Part shown: in pieces, positions 16,854 through 33,266 of the stretch | How positions within the stretch are numbered: position 1 is the stretch's first letter | Layout: every line of letters begins with the position of its first letter | NCBI GenBank assembly: GCA_032622095.1 | Contig: CP136066.1 | Coordinates: forward strand, 115,961,319 to 116,025,318 | Direction: 5' to 3' | Length of the DNA: 64,000 bases | DNA from: Siphonodentalium dalli | Taxonomy: Eukaryota; Mollusca; Scaphopoda; Gadilida; Siphonodentaliidae | Notes under the pieces: model-generated | Seen by the model: the letters and a program-made list of their open reading frames with translations, nothing else | Told to the model about the DNA's origin: nothing | Database searches by the model: none | Translations under genes and position numbers: made by a program

Positions 16854-16949
16854 CCAGATTATGATGCAAGTTGTGTTCTGTATTTATTCTACACCGTTCA
16901 GTCAGATAAGTTCAATCCATGAATGTCACCTCCATTGTTACTATACACT

Positions 16950-17290
16950 CTTATTACTAATGTGTAGTTTTTCTACACAAAATGTGTAGCCCTGCTACAC
17001 AATCATTATTCATTTTTGATCTTAAACATATTTGTGTAGTAAATGTGTAGTTTCATCGAAGTACACAAATTGTGTAAGAATTTTTACACAATAAATGGGT
17101 AAATTTCTACACATTTATACACAATGATGTGTATAAAATATACACATACCCCTTACACATTTTGTGTACTTTCTTACACATTACAGTGTATGTTTTTACA
17201 CATACTATTTACACAAAAATGTGCACAATTTCACACATTTTTGTGTTAAATTATACACATTATTGTGTTAAATTATACACATAATGGTGT
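16950..17290. repeat. Cluster of TACACA / TGTGTA motifs
   Basis: More than twenty TACACA or TGTGTA hexamers alternate in about 340 bp, often as back-to-back pairs separated by a few AT bases (CTACACAAAATGTGTAG). Spacing varies, so it is not a simple tandem repeat. A second cluster lies at 31450-31600. Confidence 0.8.
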
Positions 17291-18312
17291 ATAAAAATCA
17301 GGACCATGAATCAATATGACTAACGTACTCTCTACACCTTCACTTCAGACATTCGGATAGCTGCAGTATCTGGAACTCATGAAATGTACACTATTCTGTG
17401 CCAATATTTTGTATATACCCCAATCCTTCCAGTCCTGATGGGTCGCCGTCAGAAACATGACTGTTCATGTGGGCTATTTACATAAAAATAGCAAGTATAT
17501 ACTAATATAGTGTTGCATGAGGGCAAAATAAAACATGGGTCAACCATTGAAAACACGACTACATACATATTTCATAATTTATTGTTAGATTTCATTTCAT
17601 ATCAACATAATGAAAGGTGACTGTCTACATCCAGCCATTATATAGGCCATTTCGCACTCTATTCAACGGAAAATATGCAACAAATAAACAAATTTGAGTC
17701 TGGGATGATTGCTCAAAACACTAAATGTAACATGAAGGATGTAAAACAACATGGTAATTATAATGAAAATGAGTAAAAGGCTTAAAGGAACTTAATCCGA
17801 TTACGCACCCTTAAATTACTATTCTTTGGCTTCGGGGGTAAACAATATTTGATTCGAGTCGAGGAACTGAAAGCCATAAAGGTACTCAATACGATTAAAC
17901 ACCCCTAAATTACTATTTCTTTGGCTTCGGGGGTCAAAAATATTGTATTCGAGTCGAGGAACCCACCATTCAAAGCTCAGAGTGATCAGTTATTGATTTT
18001 TGATGTTTGTTATATTTTTTAGATGTGGTCCACTTCCACGTGCTCAAATGAACAAATTGCGGGTGTAAGGTGGATAACTAAAAAATAATGGTTATTATTG
18101 TTAATAGTAACCACTTGATTTTCGAGTTATCCATCTTACACCCGCAATTTGTCCATTTGAGCCCGTGGAAGTGGGCCACATCTAAAAAAAATAACAAACT
18201 TCAAAAATCAATAACTGATCACTCCGAGTTTTGAAGGGTGGGTTCCTCGACCCAAATCCAATATTTTCACCCCCGAAGCGAGGGGGGGGGGGGTCGTGAA
18301 ACGTTACATTGT

Positions 18313-18917
18313 GCACAGTTACTGGACATAAAGTCCCAAAAATAAGGTTTTAATCGAGTTATTTGACGATGACCATGCATAATCTCATCTAATTCTATAG
18401 CCAACACCTATTAAACCAATTAACTACAACTTTTGAATAATTCGTTGTAATAATTCACAAACTGACCGGCCTCCGATAAAGATATAGGCAGATTAACTTT
18501 TCCTTCCGACGTCCAAAACGAAAAATTGCGATCTCTCAATTGTTCCGTTTTAGTGGGTTGGCATTTTTTATTCGCCAGTTTATTTCTGCATTCGATTGGT
18601 TTCGGTTTTGAATTCAATGATGGTGTCGAGCCACTGGACGATCACGGCGAAAAATGTTTAAAACTCCGTTAATTTGGCGTCCGGAATGATTTTATCGCTG
18701 CATAGTTGTAGGTGAGTATGTTATTTATAGGAAACAAGCGACTTTATGGCCGGTATTTTGCGTTTAGTGCTTTTATTTGAGACATGTTTCTCGGGGGTGA
18801 ATTTTCAAAAATTAATTCATGCATTACCAGTGATTACTTGACTTCGTTATATAAGGATACCGATTTCTAAACTCGATTAAAACCTTATTTTTGGGACTTT
18901 ATGTCCAGTAACTGTGC
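18313..18917. mobile_element. 605-bp element with perfect 48-bp terminal inverted repeats
   Basis: 18313-18360 (GCACAGTTACTGGACATAAA and on) is exactly complementary to 18870-18917. A 48-bp perfect match implies recent movement or gene conversion. No clear target duplication was found. The interior is more GC-balanced and includes a minus-strand open frame of about 75 codons (18420-18650) with segments such as EQLRDRNFSFWTSEGKVNLP. It lacks an ATG and I do not recognise it; it could be captured exon sequence or a transposase remnant. Confidence 0.75.
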
Positions 18918-19378
18918 CCCATCTCAACAGATTCCAACAACAACAATCCGATCAGAGGGTCCTATATTACTATATCTTTGGCTTTGGGGGTAAAAAATAT
19001 TTGATTCGAGTCGAGGAACCCATCAAACAAAGCTCAAGAGTTATTAGATATTGATTTTTGAAATTTGTTATTTTCTCAAGATGAGTACTAATAATTGCCT
19101 TTAATTTCATAATCTGCTCGAGATGTGTACACCAAAACACTAATCAAACAGACAAGGATGGATAACTCTAAAATCAAGTGGTAATAATATTAACACAATT
19201 TTGACTGTGATCTGGGACAGAAAGAATAGAAATAACGAAACTTCATATATCGATATCTGATCACCCTGAGCATTGAATGGTAGGTTCCTCGACTCGTATC
19301 AATTATTTTTTACCCCCAAAGCCAAAGAAATAGTAATATAGGACCCTCTGATCGGATTGAGTACCTTTAAAACAATGT
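18918..19378. mobile_element. Fold-A family copy b, left end missing
   Basis: Begins within the family at CCCCATCTCAACAGATTCC, has the signature CTTTGGCTTTGGGGGTAAAA, folds back, and ends CGGATTGAGTACCTTTAA at 19378. Compared with 28071-28816 it preserves empty target sites for two 123-bp elements. Confidence 0.7.
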
Positions 19379-19868
19379 CCATAATGTGGGTTGAAAAAAA
19401 TTTGCACAAACAGTTTTTTTCAGGCCTCTGAGATGCACCCCGCCCGGTATAGGTATGTTTTTGGAAGATCTCCCCTGTATTACCTATAAGTTATAACTTA
19501 TATCTACCCTGTTCCTAAGTGTCTGTAAAGGCCACAACCTGCCTTAGAACACAATTATTAATGAATATATTTGAAAACAACTTAAAACAAGGGCAAAAAT
19601 GTGAATGTGAATTTTTTGCACAAATTCATTTTTTCGGGCCTCTTCGGACCTACCCACCCCAGCCCTGTATGATAAAACTTTTGTGCAACCCCCCCCCCCC
19701 CCCCCACCCGAAGCCAAAGAAATAGTACTTTTGGGGTGTTTAATCGTATTGAGTACCTTTAAGCCTTTCACTCATTTTCATTACAATTTTCAGGTCGTTA
19801 TACGTGTTTCTCTGTGTGTATTAGGAGATGGCTCAATAAGTGGCTGAATTTAAATAGTCTCCCTTTAA

Positions 19869-20736
19869 TTTTAATCCAATAATATTATGTATTTATATGT
19901 AGCCCCCCCAAATATCAGTAAAGTATTTACAAATAGATATATCACCCCTGGTCAAGTGGTCCTGCTAGTCTGCTATGATGTTGGTGATTCTGATGAATTG
20001 GTATGGTGCTGGTAGGGCAAACCGATGCTAAAGTTGTCGTTTTGGCGTGGTTTGGCTAAACAGAACGATTTGAGAAAAATGCCAGTGTCTATGAAAAATT
20101 CAAGAACAATTTAAAAAAAAAAACCTCAACAAGGGTTGTGCTATTGATTGCAAAACAACATGAATAGCCATCTTATAATAGTCAAATCACAACTAATACA
20201 GCCAGTATTGAAATATTTTGTAAAATATATGATTTTGAATGTTTGATACAATTATGTTCAGATTATTGGAACACCTCGAACATAAAGTTTAGAAAAAAAT
20301 AAAGGTACTTTTTCTTAAAGGCATCAGTTTGACCAAACAGCAGCACAGCAATTCAGCAGTCACTAGCATCATATGGTATTTCCCTAAGTAATCGACTCCT
20401 TAACCACAGCAGAATGATGTTTTTTTTTTCGGGATTTAGTCAGAAATATGGCTTGTTGCCAAATATGGCTTGCTGCCATTCACCGGAAAGCTCTCAGTGG
20501 TTATTTAGGGCATTACTGTAGCACATTAGCAGGACTACTTGAGTAGGGTAGATATATAATATACACATCAAATTACCAAAATAATTCATAACAAGTTCAG
20601 AGAATAATATTAATTACACATTTAGGCCTTTATTTGTGTGTTATACACCAAAATAAAGGATATTTCAAGATGTTCAATTATGACTTTCCATACAGCTGAC
20701 AATAGAGAACAATTATGTCAAAAAGCATCAACATAT
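19869..20736 (+). repeat. Segmental repeat unit 1 (spacer between Fold-C blocks)
   Basis: Matches 21440-22330 and 22720-23360 closely (shared TTTAATCCAATAATATTATG, ATCACCCCTGGTCAAGTGGT, AGCATCATATGGTATTTCCC). It contains a half of the palindrome seen complete at 26201-26412. No coding frame. Confidence 0.8.
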
Positions 20737-21435
20737 TGAAAGCTGACTGTCTACATCCAGCCATTATATAAGCCATCTCACACTCTATTCAATGGAAAAT
20801 ATGCAACAAATAAACAAATTTGAGTATGGGATGAGTGCACAAAACACTAAATGTAACATGAAGGATGTAAAACAACATGGTAATTATAATGAAAATGAGC
20901 AAAAGGCTTAAAGGTACTCAATACGATTACGCACCCTTAAATTACTATTTCTTTGGCTTCGGGGGGTAAAAAATATTTGATTTTAGTCGAGGAACCCACC
21001 CTTCAAAGCTCAGAGTGTTCAGATATAAATTTTTTATTTTTGTTCAGATGTGGTCCACTTCCACGTGCTGAAAAGGACAAATTGTGGGTGTCAAAAATCA
21101 AATGTTTATTATTGTTAATAGTAACCACTTGATTTTCGAGTTATCCATCTTACACCCGCAATTTGTCCATTTGAGCACGTGAAAGTGTACCACATCTAAA
21201 AAATATAACAAATTTATATCTGAACACTCTGAGCTTTGAAGGGTGGGTTCCTCGACTCGGATACAATATTTTTTACCACCATAGCCAAAGAAATAGTACT
21301 TTTGGGATGTTTAATTGTATTGAGTACCTTTAAGCCTTTCACTCATTTTCATTACAATTTTCAGGTCGTTATACGTGTTTCTCTGTGTGTAGTAGGAAAT
21401 GGCTCAATAAATGGCTGAATTTAGATAGTCTCCCT
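20737..21435. mobile_element. Fold-C block 2 with a single Fold-A insertion (20912-21329)
   Basis: The left arm of Fold-C ends AGGC and is followed by TTAA (20908-20911), a compact 418-bp Fold-A foldback starting AGGTACTCAATACG and ending GTATTGAGTACCT, then TTAA (21330-21333) and GCCTTTC of the right arm. This is the cleanest copy of the nested arrangement. Confidence 0.8.
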
Positions 21436-21439
21436 TTAA

Positions 21440-22556
21440 TTTTAATCCAATAATATTATGTATTATCATGTAGCCCCCCCCCCCCCCCCCAAATATCAGT
21501 AAAGTATTTACAAATAGATATATCACCCCTGGTCAAGTGGTCCTGCTAGTCTGCTATGATGTTGGTGATCCTGATGAATTGGTATGGTGCTGGTAGGGCA
21601 AACTGATGCTGTTACAAAAAAAAGTACCATTATTTTTCCTAAAGTTGTCGTTTTGGCGTTGTTTGGCTGAACAGAACGATTTGAGAAAAATGCCAGTGTC
21701 AATGAAACATTCAAGAACAATTTAAAAAAAAAACCTCAACAAGGTTTGTGCTATTGATTGCAAAACAACATGAATAGCCATCTTATAATAGTCAAATCAC
21801 AACTAATACAGCCAGTATTATTATAGTTAAATCACAATTAATAACATATATGATTTTGAATGTTTGATACAATTATGTTCAGATTATTGGAACACCTTGA
21901 ACATAAAGTTTAGAAAAAAATAAAGGTACTTTTTCTTAAAGGCATCAGTTTGACCAAACAGCAGCACAGCAATTCAGCAGTCACTAGCATCATATGGTAT
22001 TTCCCTAATTAATCGACTCCTTAACCACAGCAGAATTATGGGTATTTTTTCGGGATTTAGTCAGAAATATGGCTTGTTGCCATTCACCAGAAAGCTATCA
22101 GTGGTTATTTAGGGCATTACTGTAGCACATTAGCAGGACTACATGTACTTGAGTAGGGTAGATATATAATATACACATCAAATCACCAAAATAATTCATA
22201 ACAAGTTCAGAGAATAATATTAATTACACAGATACGCCTTTATTTTTGTGTTTAATATACAGAAAAATAAAGGATATTTCAAGATGTTCAATTATGACTT
22301 TCCATACGGCTGACAATACAGAACAATTTTGTCAAGAAAGTTCAGAACATCATTGCCATAACAGTGAGGAATATGTTTTCATTTTCTGATATATACTCCA
22401 TCTAGAGTGTAAATTAAGCCTAACTATTAAAGCTTAAGTGATATGAATGGCAAAGTCAGTCACCAGGTTGTGTAATGAACATAGAACAACACAGGTATAT
22501 CAATAGGTTGATGCTATCGCAAGTGTTTGCCTTGCCGCGACTGCCGGCGAGGCGAA
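21440..22556 (+). repeat. Segmental repeat unit 2
   Basis: Second copy of the spacer unit, with a C-run at 21474-21490 and small indels. After about 22330 it leaves homology and passes through a CpG-richer stretch (CTTGCCGCGACTGCCGGCGA near 22531) before Fold-C block 3. Confidence 0.75.
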
Positions 22557-22715
22557 CTTCATAATGAACATGAAGGACATAAAACAACATGGTAATAATA
22601 ATGAAAATGTGTAATTGGTTAAGCCTTTTTACTCATTTCGTTAAAATGATCAGGTCATTATACATGTTTCTCTGTGTATAGTAGGAGATGGCACAATAAA
22701 TTTAAATGTCTCCCT
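22557..22715. mobile_element. Fold-C block 3 with empty TTAA site
   Basis: The same arms as blocks 1 and 2 meet at AATTGGTTAAGCCTTTT. The single TTAA at 22619-22622 is where the other two copies carry Fold-A flanked by two TTAAs. The right end is AAATGTCTCCCT before TTAA at 22716. Confidence 0.8.
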
Positions 22716-22719
22716 TTAA

Positions 22720-23360
22720 TTTTAATCCAATAATATTATGCATTATGTAGCACCCCCCCAAATATCTGTAAATAGATATATCACCCCTGGTCAAGTGGTC
22801 CTGCTATCATGCTGGTGGTCCTGCTGAATTGCTATGGTGCTGCTAGGGCAAACTGATGCTGTTATGAAAAAGTATCATTATTTTCCTAAAGTTGTCATTT
22901 TGGCACTGTCTTTTGAAACAGAACAATTTGAGAATAATGCCAATGTCTATGAAATATTCATGAGCAATTCTTTTTAAAAAATTCAAGAATGGCTGTGCTA
23001 GTGTGCAAAACAACATGAATAGCCATCTTATTACAGTCAAATCACAATTAATACAGTCAGTATTGAAATATCTTGCAATATTTATGATTTTGAATGTTTG
23101 ATACAATTATGTTCAGATTATTGGAACACCTCGAACATGATAAATTTAGAAAAAATAAAGGTGTTTTTTTCTTAAAGGCATCAGTTTACCCAGACAGCAG
23201 CACAGCAATTCAACAGAACACACTAGCATCATAGCACAGGACTACTTCACTTGACTAGGGTATATATATAATATACACATCAAATCACCAAAATAATTCA
23301 TAACAAGTTCAGAGAATAAAATTAATTACAGTTATGCCTTTATTTGTGTGTCATACATGG
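22720..23360 (+). repeat. Segmental repeat unit 3, shortened
   Basis: Third copy of the spacer unit, with internal deletions relative to units 1 and 2 (for example, most of the half-palindrome is missing). It ends near 23360. Confidence 0.75.
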
Positions 23361-23371
23361 ATGATCTTAAA

Positions 23372-24010
23372 TGAGTTTCTATTTTATACGGAATTTATCA
23401 ACCGAGTTCACTAAATTTGATTTGAGCCGAGGTTTACCGAGGCTCAAATAGAATTTAGTGGATGAGGTTAATAAATTACATATAAAATAGAATGAGTTTG
23501 AGATACCTTTTATCACATGATCTAATAAACGCAAAGTATTCATCAAAAACAATAATCATTAAACTTCAGAAATTGCAAGTCATTCAAATAATGGTATGAC
23601 GTCATCGCACGCGCTAATACTTATAGACGTGTGTCTTACCAATAATTATGAAGCTGGTTTTGTGGGTTAATTATGTGATAAATAGAGGATCTCACATGAG
23701 TGTCTATTTTATACGGAATTTATCAACCGAGTTCACTAAATTCGATTTGAGCCGAGGTTCACCGAGGCTCAAATAGAATTTAGAGGACGAGGTTGATAAA
23801 TTACGTATAAAATTGGACGAGTGTGAGATACCTTTTATCACATGATCAAATAAACCCGAAGCAACGCGAAATATTCATCGAAAACAACAATCATAAACTA
23901 CAGCGATCGCAAGTTATTTGAAGAACAACGTGACGTCATCGCACGCACTGATATTAAACGTGTCTATTACCGATAATTATGAAACTGCTTTTATGGCCAA
24001 ATTATGTGAT
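23372..24010. repeat. Two tandem copies of a hairpin unit, about 310 bp each
   Basis: Each copy (about 23372-23670 and 23690-24010) contains an imperfect hairpin with ATTTTATACGGAATTTATCA paired to TGATAAATTACGTATAAAAT and a loop region GAGCCGAGGTTYACCGAGGC. Both continue with TTTTATCACATGATC and GTGACGTCATCGCACG-like sequence. Confidence 0.8.
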
Positions 24011-24116
24011 AAAGCAAAATAAAGGATAATTCAAGATGTTCAATTATGACTTTCCATATAGAACACAATACATGCCAATTATGTATATTAAAGCCAATAT
24101 AAAAAAAATGCTTGAT

Positions 24117-24453
24117 TTACATCCCCTTCCAACCATATTTGTAGTCTCTCTTCAATTTTTTATATATAGCCACCATCATTGGAATTGATGGGTTAAATAC
24201 TTGCCCAAATTTTAGAGTTAGATCGCTTACATCATATAGAAACATATTCTTCGATACACTGTCAAACAGTGTTTCTGATGAAAAAGTTACCAAGTTTTCT
24301 CCACTCGGTTCTCTTAAATGCACCCTAATCGGTCAAATTCTTTCGATAATTCTATCTAAATACATCTTAGCTATTATTTGGATCAGCTCTCCCCGTCGAA
24401 AAAGTGATACATGTAGTTGGACCAAAACGACACTTGAGAAAAGTTTGTTTACA
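24117..24453 (-). pseudogene. Coding fragment interrupted by one stop, unknown protein
   Basis: On the minus strand, one frame reads through residues that include SLFRRGELIQIIAKMYLDRI, meets a single TGA near 24333, then continues as PIRVHLREPSGENLVTFSS and on to MMVAIYKKLKRDYKYGWKGM with a stop at 24117. The protein-like composition on both sides of one stop suggests a decayed exon, or two exons whose junction I cannot see. It lies just downstream of the exon at 24937-24644 in the same orientation, so it may come from the same gene or a duplicated copy. No ATG starts it. Function unknown. Confidence 0.35.
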
Positions 24454-24559
24454 ATATCAATGCACAGTTTAAAAAAATAAAATTGACCTCTCGCAGTCTC
24501 CCGCCCCTTTTTTCTGAAAAAGTTGGATGTAAATCTAGCAATTTACTTAAATTGGCCTA

Positions 24560-24666
24560 ATTTATAAACTTGATGCAAAACTTAATTGATGAGGCCAATA
24601 TAAATAAATTGCTAAATTTACTCATATTGGCCATCTTATCAATTCAGTTTTGCATCAAGTTTATAA
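24560..24666. repeat. Inverted repeat over the 3' end of the terminal exon
   Basis: Arms 24560-24601 and 24624-24666 are nearly complementary (TTTATAAACTTGATGCAAAA against TTTTGCATCAAGTTTATAA), with a loop of about 22 nt. One arm is the end of the coding exon including its stop, so a transcript would end its frame inside a hairpin of about 40 bp. It could be a small inverted duplication of the exon end or a miniature element. Confidence 0.7.
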
Positions 24667-24937
24667 GTTCAGTCACACATGGTCTTCCCTTACTGCCTTT
24701 AAGACCTACAAGTTGCTCAAAAAAGTTATATATTGTGGTGAGTTCCTGCGGATACGATAAATTGAAAACAAAGTATGTTCCAAGAACAAATTCCACAGCC
24801 TTGAAAAGGTCCTCACTGTGGATGGGAATAATGTTTCTATCCACAGAACAGAAGTAGAGATCATTGATGTGAATTATTCCTGGCTGCTTCATGCCTCCTT
24901 TTTCTGCTAAGCGGATGCATTCTTCAGGTGATTCATT
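24644..24937 (-). CDS. Terminal exon of an unrecognised protein
   Basis: A clear acceptor (TATTTCAATATTTTCAG) precedes 24937 on the minus strand. An uninterrupted frame of 97 residues follows, starting NESPEECIRLAEKGG and ending CVTELINLMQN before TGA. The segment GTYFVFNLSYPQEL followed by NFFEQLVGLKGSKGRP looks like a conserved block (aromatic, V-F-N, Y-P, then F-x-Q-L and a basic loop). I associate this loosely with uncharacterised multi-exon animal proteins, but I cannot name the family. Codon structure and splice site make it a believable exon. The stop codon lies within one arm of the inverted repeat at 24560-24666, so the 3' end may have been reshaped by a duplication. No upstream exon was found in this window. 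Confidence 0.5.
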   Translation of the reverse strand, partial: NESPEECIRLAEKGGMKQPGIIHINDLYFCSVDRNIIPIHSEDLFKAVEFVLGTYFVFNLSYPQELTTIYNFFEQLVGLKGSKGRPCVTELINLMQN

Positions 24938-25006
24938 CTGAAAATATTGAAATAACTTCTTATTGACAGGTGCAAAGAAACATTCCCTCCCTGCTTACAA
25001 TATTTA

Positions 25007-25729: not shown

Positions 25730-25890
25730 ATTGCGCAATTAATTGCGCTTAAGCGCAAATACCACATATTGTGCTTAAGCGCAAATAGGGCATTTACCCT
25801 TAAGTGTAATTAATTACGCTTAAGCGCAATTAATTGCGCTTAAGCGCAATCAATTGTGCTTAAGCGCAATCAATTGCGCTTAAGCGTAAT
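25730..25890. repeat. Palindromic tandem repeat GCGCTTAAGCGCAATTAATT
   Basis: About seven units of roughly 20 bp in which both halves are self-complementary (GCGCTTAAGCGC and AATTAATT), so the whole array reads almost the same on both strands. Variants replace AATTAATT with AATCAATT or spacer bases. Confidence 0.85.
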
Positions 25891-27145: not shown

Positions 27146-28102
27146 AAAAAAAAAGATTGTATGTTTCCGCTAATGGAGCGAAAAAATTAGGGTATAGGTA
27201 GGCAGGAAATTTTTTGTTTTATTTTATTTTGATATTTTGTATCCAGCTGCAGGAATATTGAATTACCTCGACCAAAGTGACATAAAATGCCAACTCGTGA
27301 TTTGGGGAAAGTATTACTTGATACTGTGGTTAAACAAATTATTTTTATAGTATATGTATAAGGAATCAACATAGTATTTGTCAAGTGGTGTTTTATTCAA
27401 TATGAATATTTAAATGTTCACATGTACACCATATATACATGTACTTGAATATGTACATGCATAAAGTTATAAGCTCATCATTTCGGTATCTGAATCATAT
27501 AGAAATCTTGAGTTTGTGCTGATTTCAATTTTCATAGCTTCAAAATCAATAAACATGCAGACCCAAAATTGGAAATAAGGATTATAAGTACTGTGCAGGG
27601 GGGGGGGGGGGGATTTCCCAAAAAAATAATAAACGTGCATGCATGTTTATTTGGAGTCCATGAGTAGGGTCGGCGGGTTAGTTTTCGGGTCGGTCGATGT
27701 GCGGAAACTTAGTATCTTTTTTTTTGTCTTACAGGGCCCAGTTAAAGATAGCAATTTGACTATTAAAAAGCCCAAATAGTCCCCACCCTGAGCCCAAAAT
27801 ACATCCCAGGGTGACCAGATATGTTTTTTGATTGCCTGCCTATACTCTTGGGCTCCAAATAAACATGCATGCACCTTTATTATTGTATTGGATAATTTTC
27901 TCCTTACACAGTGCTTATTTGGGTCTGCACATTTGAGGCTATATAAATTGAAATCAGCACAAACTCTAGATTTCTAAATGTATATGACTCTGATATAAAA
28001 ATGGTGAGCTTACAGGTATAACTTTATACATGTACCTTTGTATATGTATGGCATACATGTGAACATTTAAAGGTACTCAATCCGAACAGAGGGTCCCCAT
28101 CT

Positions 28103-28225
28103 CAGCCTTCATAATTAGCTACGGCAATCAGCATTGCCAAAGCAATTTGCTGAAGCAAACTGGGCCATGGCATACTGTTGCCATAGCGGATTGCCGAAGC
28201 CAAACAATCTGAATTAAGAGGGCTG
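28103..28225. mobile_element. 123-bp miniature element E, copy 1
   Basis: Ends are CAGCCTTCATAATT and AATTAAGAGGGCTG (imperfect inverted repeats). It is flanked by CCATCT on both sides (28097-28102 and 28226-28231). The Fold-A copy at 18918 has a single uninterrupted CCATCTCAACAG, i.e. the empty site. The inner part is also self-complementary (GCTACGGCAATC against GATTGCCGAAGC). Confidence 0.85.
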
Positions 28226-28460
28226 CCATCTCAACAGATTCCAACAACAACAATCCGATCAGAGGGTCCTATATTACTATTTCTTTGGCTTTGGGGGTAA
28301 AAAATATTTGATTCGAGTCGAGTCGAACCCATTAAACAAAGCTCAGAGTTATTAGATATTGATTTTTGAAATTTGTTAGTTTCTCGAGATGAGTACTAAT
28401 AATTGCCGTCAGTTTTGTAACCTGCGCGAGATGTGTACACCAAAACAATATTCCAACAGA

Positions 28461-28583
28461 CAGCCTTCATAATTGGCTACGGCAATCGGCAATGCCGAAG
28501 CCATTTGCTGAAGCAAACTAGGCCACGGTAAATGGTTGCCGTAGCAGATTGCCGAAGCCAGACAATCTGAATTAAAAGGGCTG
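28461..28583. mobile_element. 123-bp miniature element E, copy 2
   Basis: Same length and ends as copy 1, with about 12 substitutions. It is flanked by AACAGA on both sides (28455-28460 and 28584-28589). The empty site AAACAGACAAGG is present in the paralogous Fold-A copy near 19157. Confidence 0.85.
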
Positions 28584-29047
28584 AACAGACAAGGATTGAT
28601 AACTCTAAAATCAAGTGGTAATAATAACGCAATTTTGATAGAGTTAAAATTCTGGGCCAGAAAGTATTCCCGATAATGAAAAATAATAGATTTCTAAAAT
28701 TGATATCTAACAAATCTGAGCTTTGATGGGTGACTTCCTCGACTCGAATCAAATATTTTTGACCCCCGAAGCCATTGAAATAGTAATTGAGAGGAGTTTT
28801 ATTGGATTGAGTACCTTTAAATATTGAATAAAACACCACATGACACATACTATGTTGATTCCTATACTTGAAATACTTATTCCTACATTATAAAAATACT
28901 TTGTTTAACCACCTTTAATATGTTGATGTTTTGTTCAGAGTTCACCCTGCACTATTATTTGGGTCTGCTTGTTTATTAAATTTCAATGGAATTTCCCCCC
29001 TGCACTATTATTTGGGCCTGCACTTTTATTTGGAGCCGAAGAGTACT

Positions 29048-31600: not shown

Positions 31601-32314
31601 AGCTATCTTTATTGTGATTTAAATTAAATTAAATTTAAATTAAATTACGTCACGTTTGCACCAACACCTGGATGCCAGCTATCATACTACTATACCGATC
31701 ATTTCATGGTGGACAATGAATGAAAATAGCGGATAATGAAATTAAAAACGTGAATGTGTGGTGAATGTGTGGTGAATGTGTTGTTGATGTATTTTTATTA
31801 TATGCTTGCCTGTAATAGCGGGAAATTGCCGAAAGGTAGATCTTAGAAGTTACAGTGAAATACGATGTCGTTATCTCACTGTATTTCGTTAAATTTCACT
31901 GTAGCCCGCCGGGTGGTTTGTACATGAGCGAGAAATTTGAAGACAAATTCTATAACCGCGCGTTATAGTAAATTTTTGCAAACTTATCGGTTATAACCCA
32001 CAACCTTATTCGAAACAAGAGTTATTTCTTATAATTGAATCCGTTATTGCATAGGAGAACCACCATAATAAAAGGCAGGAGTAACAAGCGAAATACTTTC
32101 CGAAGAAAATCACACACACGCGTAAAGTTGAAACAGGCACCCGTGACATCTAATTATCGACCAAGTGTCGTCAGATATTCGGCACCGCAACTTATATCAC
32201 GCACCATGCAGCTATGACCCGTGCACGTGGGTTTTATATATGTGTACTGGTGACACGGAGAATTGTTAATTTCGATTCCGTGTTTCATTTCTTTGCATGA
32301 GTCTTGTTGCTTAA

Positions 32315-32662
32315 ATGGGTACTGTACACTAACTCCGGCCATTTGTGGGACCATCACATTTTATACTCAACAAAATATATGCAACAAATGAATGAATTTG
32401 AGCCATTGATTAGTGCAATATAAACTCATGTGTTCTATGAGTGATGCAAACAACATGGTAATTATAATGAAAATGAATAAATGGCTAGAGTCATAAATTC
32501 ATTTTCGTTATAATTACCATGTTGTTTGCATCGTTCATTGAGAACATGGCTGTATTTTTCACTAATCCATGGCTCAAATTCATTCATTTTTTGCATATAT
32601 TATGTTGAGTATATAAGGAGATGGTTCCATAAATGGCCGGATCTAGTGTATACAGTACCCCT
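32315..32662. mobile_element. Fold-B foldback with TTAA target duplication
   Basis: ATGGGTACTGTACACTAACTCC at the left and GGATCTAGTGTATACAGTAC at the right are inverted. TTAA lies at 32311-32314 and 32663-32666. The arms pair through AACATGGTAATTATAATGAAA with its complement around a centre at about 32488. The arms are homologous to Fold-C. Confidence 0.8.
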
Positions 32663-33266
32663 TTAATCTAGGTACATATAATTATGCACTTTCGATTAGT
32701 AGGAAGTATTCTTCCCGAGTATTGTTCAAATTGCTGTACTATTAAAAGTCAAAAATGCCGCATAATTTAGCAACTTTGAGCTTTAATAAGCTGTGTACAT
32801 TCTGAGTTAACATGTTTCAAGCGAGAGATAGAGTGTGCAATCTCGCATTCAGAAATTGGATATGGCAACTAGAGAGACAAACTGACAGCAATCACAAGAA
32901 GAAAGACAAGAATCAACAATTAAAACACCAGATGGTTTGATTGATAAATACTGAGCGAACCGTATAGGTATGCATGTCGACACATATTGAAGAATATCAA
33001 AGTTCCGATACCAATCACATGCATGCAGGCTTGCAATAATATGACTCCTCGTTGTTTTTATTACAAACGTCTCCTTTCCAAATTAAAGAGTTTGTATGTT
33101 TATGGTGTTTAGTCAACATATACTAGTATATATGGATTAATATGTTCACCTTACCGCTTCAATCGTATCATTGAACTCGTGACAACGAACTGACGAGTTA
33201 CTGTATGCCCCATCGGATTTTCATTGGGATAATGTAATTTTATACATGAGTTTAATTTATCGGAGC

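What the first reader, a model, noticed from the sequence alone, without database searches (positions are those of the whole stretch)
17611..22715. Foldback inside foldback at TTAA, with a paralogous empty site
Three Fold-C blocks lie in a segmental tandem array. Blocks 1 and 2 carry Fold-A bounded by TTAA at the exact centre of Fold-C; block 3 has one TTAA there and nothing else. This shows TTAA duplication directly, shows that Fold-A moved as a unit, and orders events: Fold-C first, Fold-A next, then duplication. Insertion at the loop suggests a preference for TTAA at palindrome centres.
Basis: seen in the sequence. Interest (0 to 1): 0.75.

Follow-up and report, generated by a model that had tools for sequence, protein, structure and literature searches.

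The report
Jumping DNA landing in hairpin loops
In a 2.2-Gb genome, short mobile DNA pieces that insert only at the letters TTAA have repeatedly landed in the TTAA at the exact tip of an older hairpin-shaped mobile element, several to tens of times more often than at an average TTAA, which suggests that they favour a TTAA held open in a loop.

Summary
In detail: three blocks, a TTAA-flanked insert at the Fold-C centre in blocks 1 and 2, a single TTAA in block 3. Fold-A is a very abundant foldback MITE (47,852 exact ends, 88% preceded by TTAA); Fold-C is also a dispersed TTAA-flanked foldback. Both have RR..YY ends, the Kolobok signature, not piggyBac's. No transposase was tied to either.

The array was later copied to two other chromosomes.

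The loop preference looked over-read (0 of 30 dispersed Fold-A copies lie at palindrome centres), but a genome-wide test supports it. Of 97 intact half-sites of the GGC-TTAA-GCC loop, about 14 hold recognisable TTAA elements of at least three families, against 0.9% of ordinary TTAA half-sites and 4 of 153 TTAAs at MITE ends. Eight piggyBac-type inserts are 83-98% alike while their host arms are 58-89% alike: repeated independent insertions. The TTAA is the four-base loop of the predicted hairpin, like the unpaired TTAA that piggyBac transposase binds. The structural cause is inferred.

The parts
17614..19864 (+). Block 1: Fold-C (C2 subfamily) foldback MITE, interrupted at its loop; left TSD degenerate (ATGA 17610-17613), right TTAA 19865-19868
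   Evidence: ends compared with full Fold-C copies
17782..17785 (.). Left TTAA of the loop insertion, block 1
17786..19758 (+). Composite insert in block 1: Fold-A ends (17786-17867 and about 19712-19758) split by further Fold-A copies (17877-18279, 18944-19370) and other DNA
19759..19762 (.). Right TTAA of the loop insertion, block 1
20740..21435 (+). Block 2: Fold-C2 with Fold-A at its loop; left TSD TTGA 20736-20739, right TTAA 21436-21439
20908..20911 (.). Left TTAA, block 2
20912..21329 (+). Fold-A in block 2 (418 bp; ends AGGTACTCAAT / ATTGAGTACCT)
21330..21333 (.). Right TTAA, block 2
22563..22715 (+). Block 3: left-truncated Fold-C2 with an empty loop; right TTAA 22716-22719
22619..22622 (.). 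Empty-site TTAA at the Fold-C loop, block 3
   Evidence: also empty in the C2 copy of the array
28067..28820 (+). Another Fold-A copy (754 bp with both TTAAs) at a non-palindromic site
32311..32666 (+). Full-length Fold-C1 MITE with TTAA at both ends (ends AGGGGTACTGT-type) and a loop without TTAA

Best explanation
Fold-A and Fold-C are two families of non-autonomous foldback MITEs that insert at TTAA and have Kolobok-type RR..YY ends. In the window, a Fold-C2 element whose central palindrome is GGC-TTAA-GCC was copied with its flank. After block 3 had split off, one Fold-A inserted at that central TTAA, and the filled block was then duplicated to give blocks 1 and 2; the array was later copied to two other chromosomes. 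Genome-wide, this loop TTAA is a repeated target for at least three unrelated TTAA families (Fold-A; a CCCTTTACCC piggyBac-type MITE of about 385 bp; other AG-ended elements). The most likely reason is that a TTAA at the exact centre of a palindrome is the unpaired tetraloop of an extruded hairpin or cruciform, close to the melted TTAA conformation that TTAA transposases need. Shown: anatomy, TSDs, order of events, repeated independent insertion, enrichment over average TTAA. Inferred: cruciform extrusion as the cause, and Kolobok transposase as the mover of Fold-A.
For: TTAA precedes 42,163 of 47,852 exact Fold-A ends. Fold-C copies elsewhere are dispersed, palindromic and TTAA-flanked. Block distances: 1-2 0.037; 3 versus 1 and 2 0.15-0.17. 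There are 79 empty loops at up to 3 mismatches and 416 half-sites at up to 1 mismatch (control 16). Fold-A fills non-array loops at C3:87.10M, C2:179.93M and C3:111.04M (both arms seen), C4:291.09M with its duplicate at 292.39M, and on one arm at C2:160.39M and C9:139.11M: about 6 events against 1-1.8 expected. The CCCTTTACC MITE fills 9 of 97 perfect half-sites against 6 of 2,430 elsewhere, P 5e-10. Its inserts are 83-98% alike, their host arms 58-89%, and they lie in both orientations. Other elements sit at the same loop (1.85 kb at C1:107.79M; 364 bp at C2:115.31M). Loops 14 of 97 versus MITE-end TTAAs 4 of 153, P 7e-4. TTAA is the four-base hairpin loop in the predicted fold, z -4.0. In the piggyBac strand-transfer complex the target TTAA is unpaired and resembles the TTAA hairpin intermediate (PMC7351741).
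Against: 0 of 30 dispersed Fold-A insertions are at palindromes, although such TTAA sites are rare, so this has little power. Against Fold-C's own ends alone (4 of 63) the loop excess is not significant (P 0.13). Fold-A enrichment alone is modest (3-6x). The sample is the first 100 listed half-sites of one hairpin family. No other TTAA-loop palindrome family was tested, so loop geometry and some other property of Fold-C2 are not separated.
Confidence: 0.68

Rival explanations
1. No loop preference as such: Fold-C2 copies are old and lie in MITE-rich, insertion-tolerant DNA, so any TTAA in or next to them has collected more insertions.
For: TTAAs at Fold-C ends are also raised (4 of 63) over ordinary TTAA (CCCTTT 0.6%). 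Loops versus Fold-C ends alone is not significant.
Against: Loops exceed pooled Fold-C and Fold-A ends (14 of 97 vs 4 of 153, P 7e-4). The strict CCCTTTACC count is 9 of 97 loops vs 1 of 153 ends, P 0.001.
Confidence: 0.25
2. The palindrome was made around Fold-A by inverted duplication of its flank, so Fold-A is at the centre for that reason and did not insert into a palindrome.
For: This seems to have happened at C9:139.11M: a 1,162-bp palindrome (96%) with Fold-A at its centre, both Fold-A ends sharing the variant AAAGTTACT, the arm sequence hit on one strand only elsewhere.
Against: For Fold-C2 there are 79 empty palindromic loops and many loops filled by unrelated elements; Fold-C is a dispersed family without Fold-A.
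Confidence: 0.04
3. Block 3 once held Fold-A and lost it by precise excision; all duplications followed the insertion.
For: piggyBac excision leaves no footprint (PMC7351741), so the empty site by itself cannot exclude it; the footprint behaviour of Kolobok excision is not known to me.
Against: Block 3 is the deep outgroup (72 sites unite 1 and 2 against 12 and 5), its C2 copy is also empty, and empty loops are the common state.
Confidence: 0.1
4. Fold-A is moved by a piggyBac transposase.
For: TTAA target; more than 100 PF13843 matches, many with long open frames.
Against: Fold-A begins AGG and ends CCT. TTAA elements with 5'-RR..YY-3' ends are Kolobok, not piggyBac (PMC9587614); Xenopus T2-MITEs are TTAA + AGGRR (PMC6004289). 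A PF20700 + YqaJ transposase like KolobokE is in the genome.
Confidence: 0.12

Closest known systems
Kolobok-superfamily MITEs (Xenopus T2-MITE)
   Same: TTAA target duplication, AGG.. ends (RR..YY), very high copy number, no coding capacity
   Different: Fold-A and Fold-C are near-complete foldbacks; the end sequence AGGTACTCAAT was not matched to any named family here; no autonomous partner found
piggyBac-type MITEs
   Same: The about 385-bp element found in Fold-C2 loops has TTAA + CCCTTTACCC ends, like piggyBac-type elements
   Different: Fold-A and Fold-C have AG..CT ends; no transposase was linked to any of them
piggyBac target recognition (TTAA melted, same shape as TTAA hairpin; PMC7351741)
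   Same: Predicts that an already unpaired TTAA tetraloop would be a good target
   Different: Published for one enzyme in vitro; no palindrome-centre preference is reported in the passages read
Insertion of transposons at palindromic targets (plant LTR retrotransposons, PMC6911290 title and abstract; bacterial IS into REP palindromes and P elements, from memory)
   Same: Palindromic targets preferred
   Different: Those are other enzyme classes; here elements with two TTAA-type end classes use the tip of another MITE's hairpin

Membership tests
Kolobok superfamily (non-autonomous) | TTAA target-site duplication | tested here: met
   42,163 of 47,852 exact Fold-A ends preceded by TTAA; Fold-C copies TTAA-flanked
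Kolobok superfamily (non-autonomous) | 5'-RR .. YY-3' termini | tested here: met
   Fold-A AGGTACTC..GAGTACCT, Fold-C AGGGGTACTG..CAGTACCCCT; criterion from PMC9587614
Kolobok superfamily (non-autonomous) | Mobilised by a Kolobok DDD/E transposase with matching ends | tested here: inconclusive
   A PF20700 + YqaJ protein like KolobokE is present, but no matching ends were found around the one copy examined
piggyBac superfamily | TTAA target-site duplication | tested here: met
piggyBac superfamily | CCY-type termini (not RR..YY) | tested here: not met
   Fold-A and Fold-C start AGG. Met by the other loop element, CCCTTTACCC
piggyBac superfamily | Transposase gene with AGGTACTCAAT ends | not tested
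Foldback MITE | Short, non-coding, high copy number, arms pairing over most of the length | tested here: met
   block 2 Fold-A pairs with its own reverse complement over its full length at 80%; Fold-C1 about 340 bp matching both strands, over 6,000 first-look candidates

The most novel reading that the evidence does not exclude
TTAA-specific transposases of more than one superfamily read DNA shape: they prefer a TTAA presented as the unpaired tetraloop of a cruciform, so foldback MITEs with a TTAA tip act as landing pads ('MITE traps') and seed nested foldbacks.
Probability: 0.4. Interest if true: 0.75.

Novelty: new variant of a known kind. Interest (0 to 1): 0.58.

Why it matters
If the loop effect is structural, it links a published enzyme property (piggyBac binds a melted TTAA that looks like its own TTAA hairpin) to where elements land in a genome, offers a natural reporter of cruciform extrusion in the germline, explains part of the nesting of MITEs, and suggests a simple way to bias TTAA vectors to a chosen site.

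Tried and rejected
(1) Flank-complementarity test on 30 independent dispersed Fold-A copies: no palindrome signal and no GGC context at -1 to -3, so the loop excess is not a primary-sequence motif of ordinary sites. (2) Three more AAAAGGC|TTAA contexts (L112, L113, L114) showed no Fold-C arm and are chance matches. (3) C9:58.42M tandem copies: not Fold-C2 loops. (4) L125: weak match, not a Fold-C arm. (5) C9:139.11M centre case: palindrome most likely made around Fold-A, so not counted as insertion into a palindrome; its separate Fold-C2 left arm with Fold-A is counted on one arm only. (6) Amplification of one Fold-C2 + MITE composite rejected by orientations and by insert versus arm divergence. 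(7) Ends of a PF20700 transposase element: none found with TTAA and matching inverted repeats. (8) Literature searches returned no report, in titles and abstracts listed, of TTAA transposons preferring palindrome centres; the library lacks most subscription journals.
Full report
WHAT WAS CHECKED. The window lies in a 2.23-Gb, nine-contig assembly. In 17611-22715 there are three tandem blocks. Each contains a Fold-C element; blocks 1 and 2 have an insert at the centre of Fold-C with TTAA on both sides (17782-17785 / 19759-19762 and 20908-20911 / 21330-21333), and block 3 has one TTAA (22619-22622) and no insert. The inner flanks are complementary at 19 of 20 and 18 of 20 positions. Two details differ from the finding: the block 1 insert is a 1.97-kb composite of broken Fold-A copies and other DNA, and Fold-C in the blocks is asymmetric, and truncated on the left in block 3.

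WHAT THE ELEMENTS ARE. Fold-A ends (AGGTACTCAAT) occur 47,852 times exactly, against about 920 for the reversed control, and 42,163 (88%) are preceded by TTAA, against 5 in the control. Fold-C is itself a dispersed foldback of about 340 bp: a full copy at 32311-32666 has TTAA at both ends, and 30 copies elsewhere show ends TTAA|AGGGGTACTGTACAC and near-perfect arms. The copies in the blocks belong to a relative, Fold-C2 (ends TTAA|AGGGAGACTGTACC in several copies), whose tip is GGC-TTAA-GCC; the main family has no TTAA at its tip. Both Fold-A and Fold-C start AG and end CT. TTAA elements with RR..YY ends are assigned to Kolobok and distinguished from piggyBac (PMC9587614), and the Xenopus T2-MITEs are TTAA + AGGRR (PMC6004289). 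So the source is more likely Kolobok than piggyBac. The genome has both piggyBac (PF13843) and PF20700 transposases; one of the latter carries a YqaJ nuclease domain, as described for KolobokE. None was tied to AGGTACTC ends.

HISTORY OF THE ARRAY. Distances on the block DNA to the right of the loop are 0.037 between blocks 1 and 2 and 0.15-0.17 to block 3; 72 sites unite 1 and 2 against 12 and 5 for the other groupings. Block 3 therefore split first, Fold-A went into the common ancestor of 1 and 2, and a second duplication followed. The array also lies at C2:220.86-220.87M (about 95%, block 3 empty there too) and C4:252.62M (99.6-99.8%, lacking window 21668-24047). These copies are one insertion event, not several.

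IS THERE A LOOP PREFERENCE? At first it looked unnecessary: the loop TTAA is the only internal TTAA in the left arm, and 0 of 30 independent Fold-A insertions in C1:0-10 Mb lie at a palindrome centre. But such sites are rare, so the right test is occupancy of the loops. The half-site AATGAGTAAAWGGC|TTAA occurs 416 times at up to one mismatch (control 16); 79 loops are empty at up to 3 mismatches (each is listed on both strands). Fold-A fills loops outside the array at C3:87.10M, C2:179.93M and C3:111.04M (both arms read), at C4:291.09M with a near-identical duplicate at 292.39M, and, with one arm read, at C2:160.39M and C9:139.11M. Six events are found where 1.0-1.8 are expected from the genome or held-sequence baseline; the 1.0 figure uses my rough estimate that 0.25% of TTAA sites carry a Fold-A.

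Reading the nine bases after TTAA in 100 perfect half-sites showed that other TTAA elements use the same loop: CCCTTTACC in 9, AGGCCCACT in 3, and single cases of other AG-ended elements, among them a 1.85-kb element at C1:107.79M and a 364-bp one at C2:115.31M, both read through to the second arm. The 97 half-sites used below are these 100 without the three array copies. CCCTTTACC follows only 6 of 2,430 TTAA half-sites in held DNA not chosen for Fold-C2; 9 of 97 versus 6 of 2,430 gives P 5e-10. Eight of the nine were read: a MITE of about 340-390 bp, flanked by TTAA, in both orientations, with the second Fold-C2 arm seen in L134, L136, L137, L138 and L140. The inserts are 83-98% identical while the host arms are 58-89% identical, so they are separate insertions into old Fold-C2 copies, not one composite that spread. 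One of the eight (L133) has little Fold-C2 sequence left of the half-site, so seven are secure.

CONTROLS AND LIMITS. TTAAs at the outer ends of Fold-C are also raised (4 of 63); against these alone the loop excess is not significant (P 0.13). With 90 Fold-A ends added (none occupied) it is 14 of 97 versus 4 of 153, P 7e-4. The pooled control was assembled after seeing the first comparison and should be repeated on a full count. Loss of empty loops by hairpin deletion could inflate occupancy, but one-sided deletions are only about 6-7 of 97 half-sites (read), too few to give a several-fold effect. Half-sites are the first 100 listed (perfect matches, in contig order), not a random draw.

MECHANISM. 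In the predicted fold of an empty Fold-C2 copy the TTAA is exactly the four-base hairpin loop (z -4.0). In piggyBac the target TTAA is melted in the strand-transfer complex and takes the shape of the TTAA hairpin intermediate (PMC7351741). A pre-opened TTAA loop should therefore be a good target. This is inference; whether Kolobok transposase works in the same way is not known to me. At C9:139.11M the reverse process is seen: a 1,162-bp palindrome apparently built around a Fold-A by inverted duplication, a warning that a central position alone does not prove insertion into a palindrome.

VERDICT. The less ordinary part, a TTAA hairpin tip used again and again by unrelated TTAA elements, is supported by counts here, with its structural cause still to be tested.

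Noticed in passing
L115 + L117 (C9:139,110,856-139,112,017): 1,162-bp palindrome (96%) with a Fold-A at its centre; both Fold-A ends share the variant AAAGTTACT and the arm sequence hits on one strand only elsewhere, so the palindrome was probably made around Fold-A by inverted duplication.
   Followed up: partly
L110 (C4:252,623,600-252,629,800) versus window 16942-25000: Near-identical (99.6-99.8%) interchromosomal copy of the array, lacking window 21668-24047, so a recent segmental duplication followed or accompanied by a 2.4-kb deletion.
   Followed up: partly
C2:220,859,940-220,871,153: In the C2 copy of the array the block 1 loop insert spans about 11 kb (about 2 kb in the window).
   Followed up: no
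C2:178,172,508-178,205,115; C3:99,313,395-99,323,517; C9:23,151,209-23,164,745; C6:79,177,920-79,192,543: PF20700 transposase frames of about 600 aa in head-to-tail rows with a near-constant period (about 4.49 kb, or 6.2 kb on C9), reminiscent of KolobokP multimers.
   Followed up: no
L139 (C6:864,340-864,990): A CCCTTTACC MITE in a Fold-C2 loop abuts, at its far TTAA, an AGACACGGGCGGC-ended element, i.e. apparently two TTAA elements stacked in one loop; the outer Fold-C2 end also abuts a CCCTTTACC end.
   Followed up: partly
window 25800-25870: Short array of TTAAGCGCAATTAATTGCGC-like palindromic units; further palindromic TTAA sites of low complexity.
   Followed up: no
window 17040-17290: Stretch of irregular ACACA / TGTGT-rich units of about 20-25 bp just upstream of block 1.
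   Followed up: no
L118 (C3:87,101,164-87,102,364): The loop insert has unlike ends, AGGTACTCAAT on one side and AGATGTATAAT on the other, so Fold-A and an AGATGCATAAT-ended family seem to form hybrid elements (see also L037 and L119).
   Followed up: no
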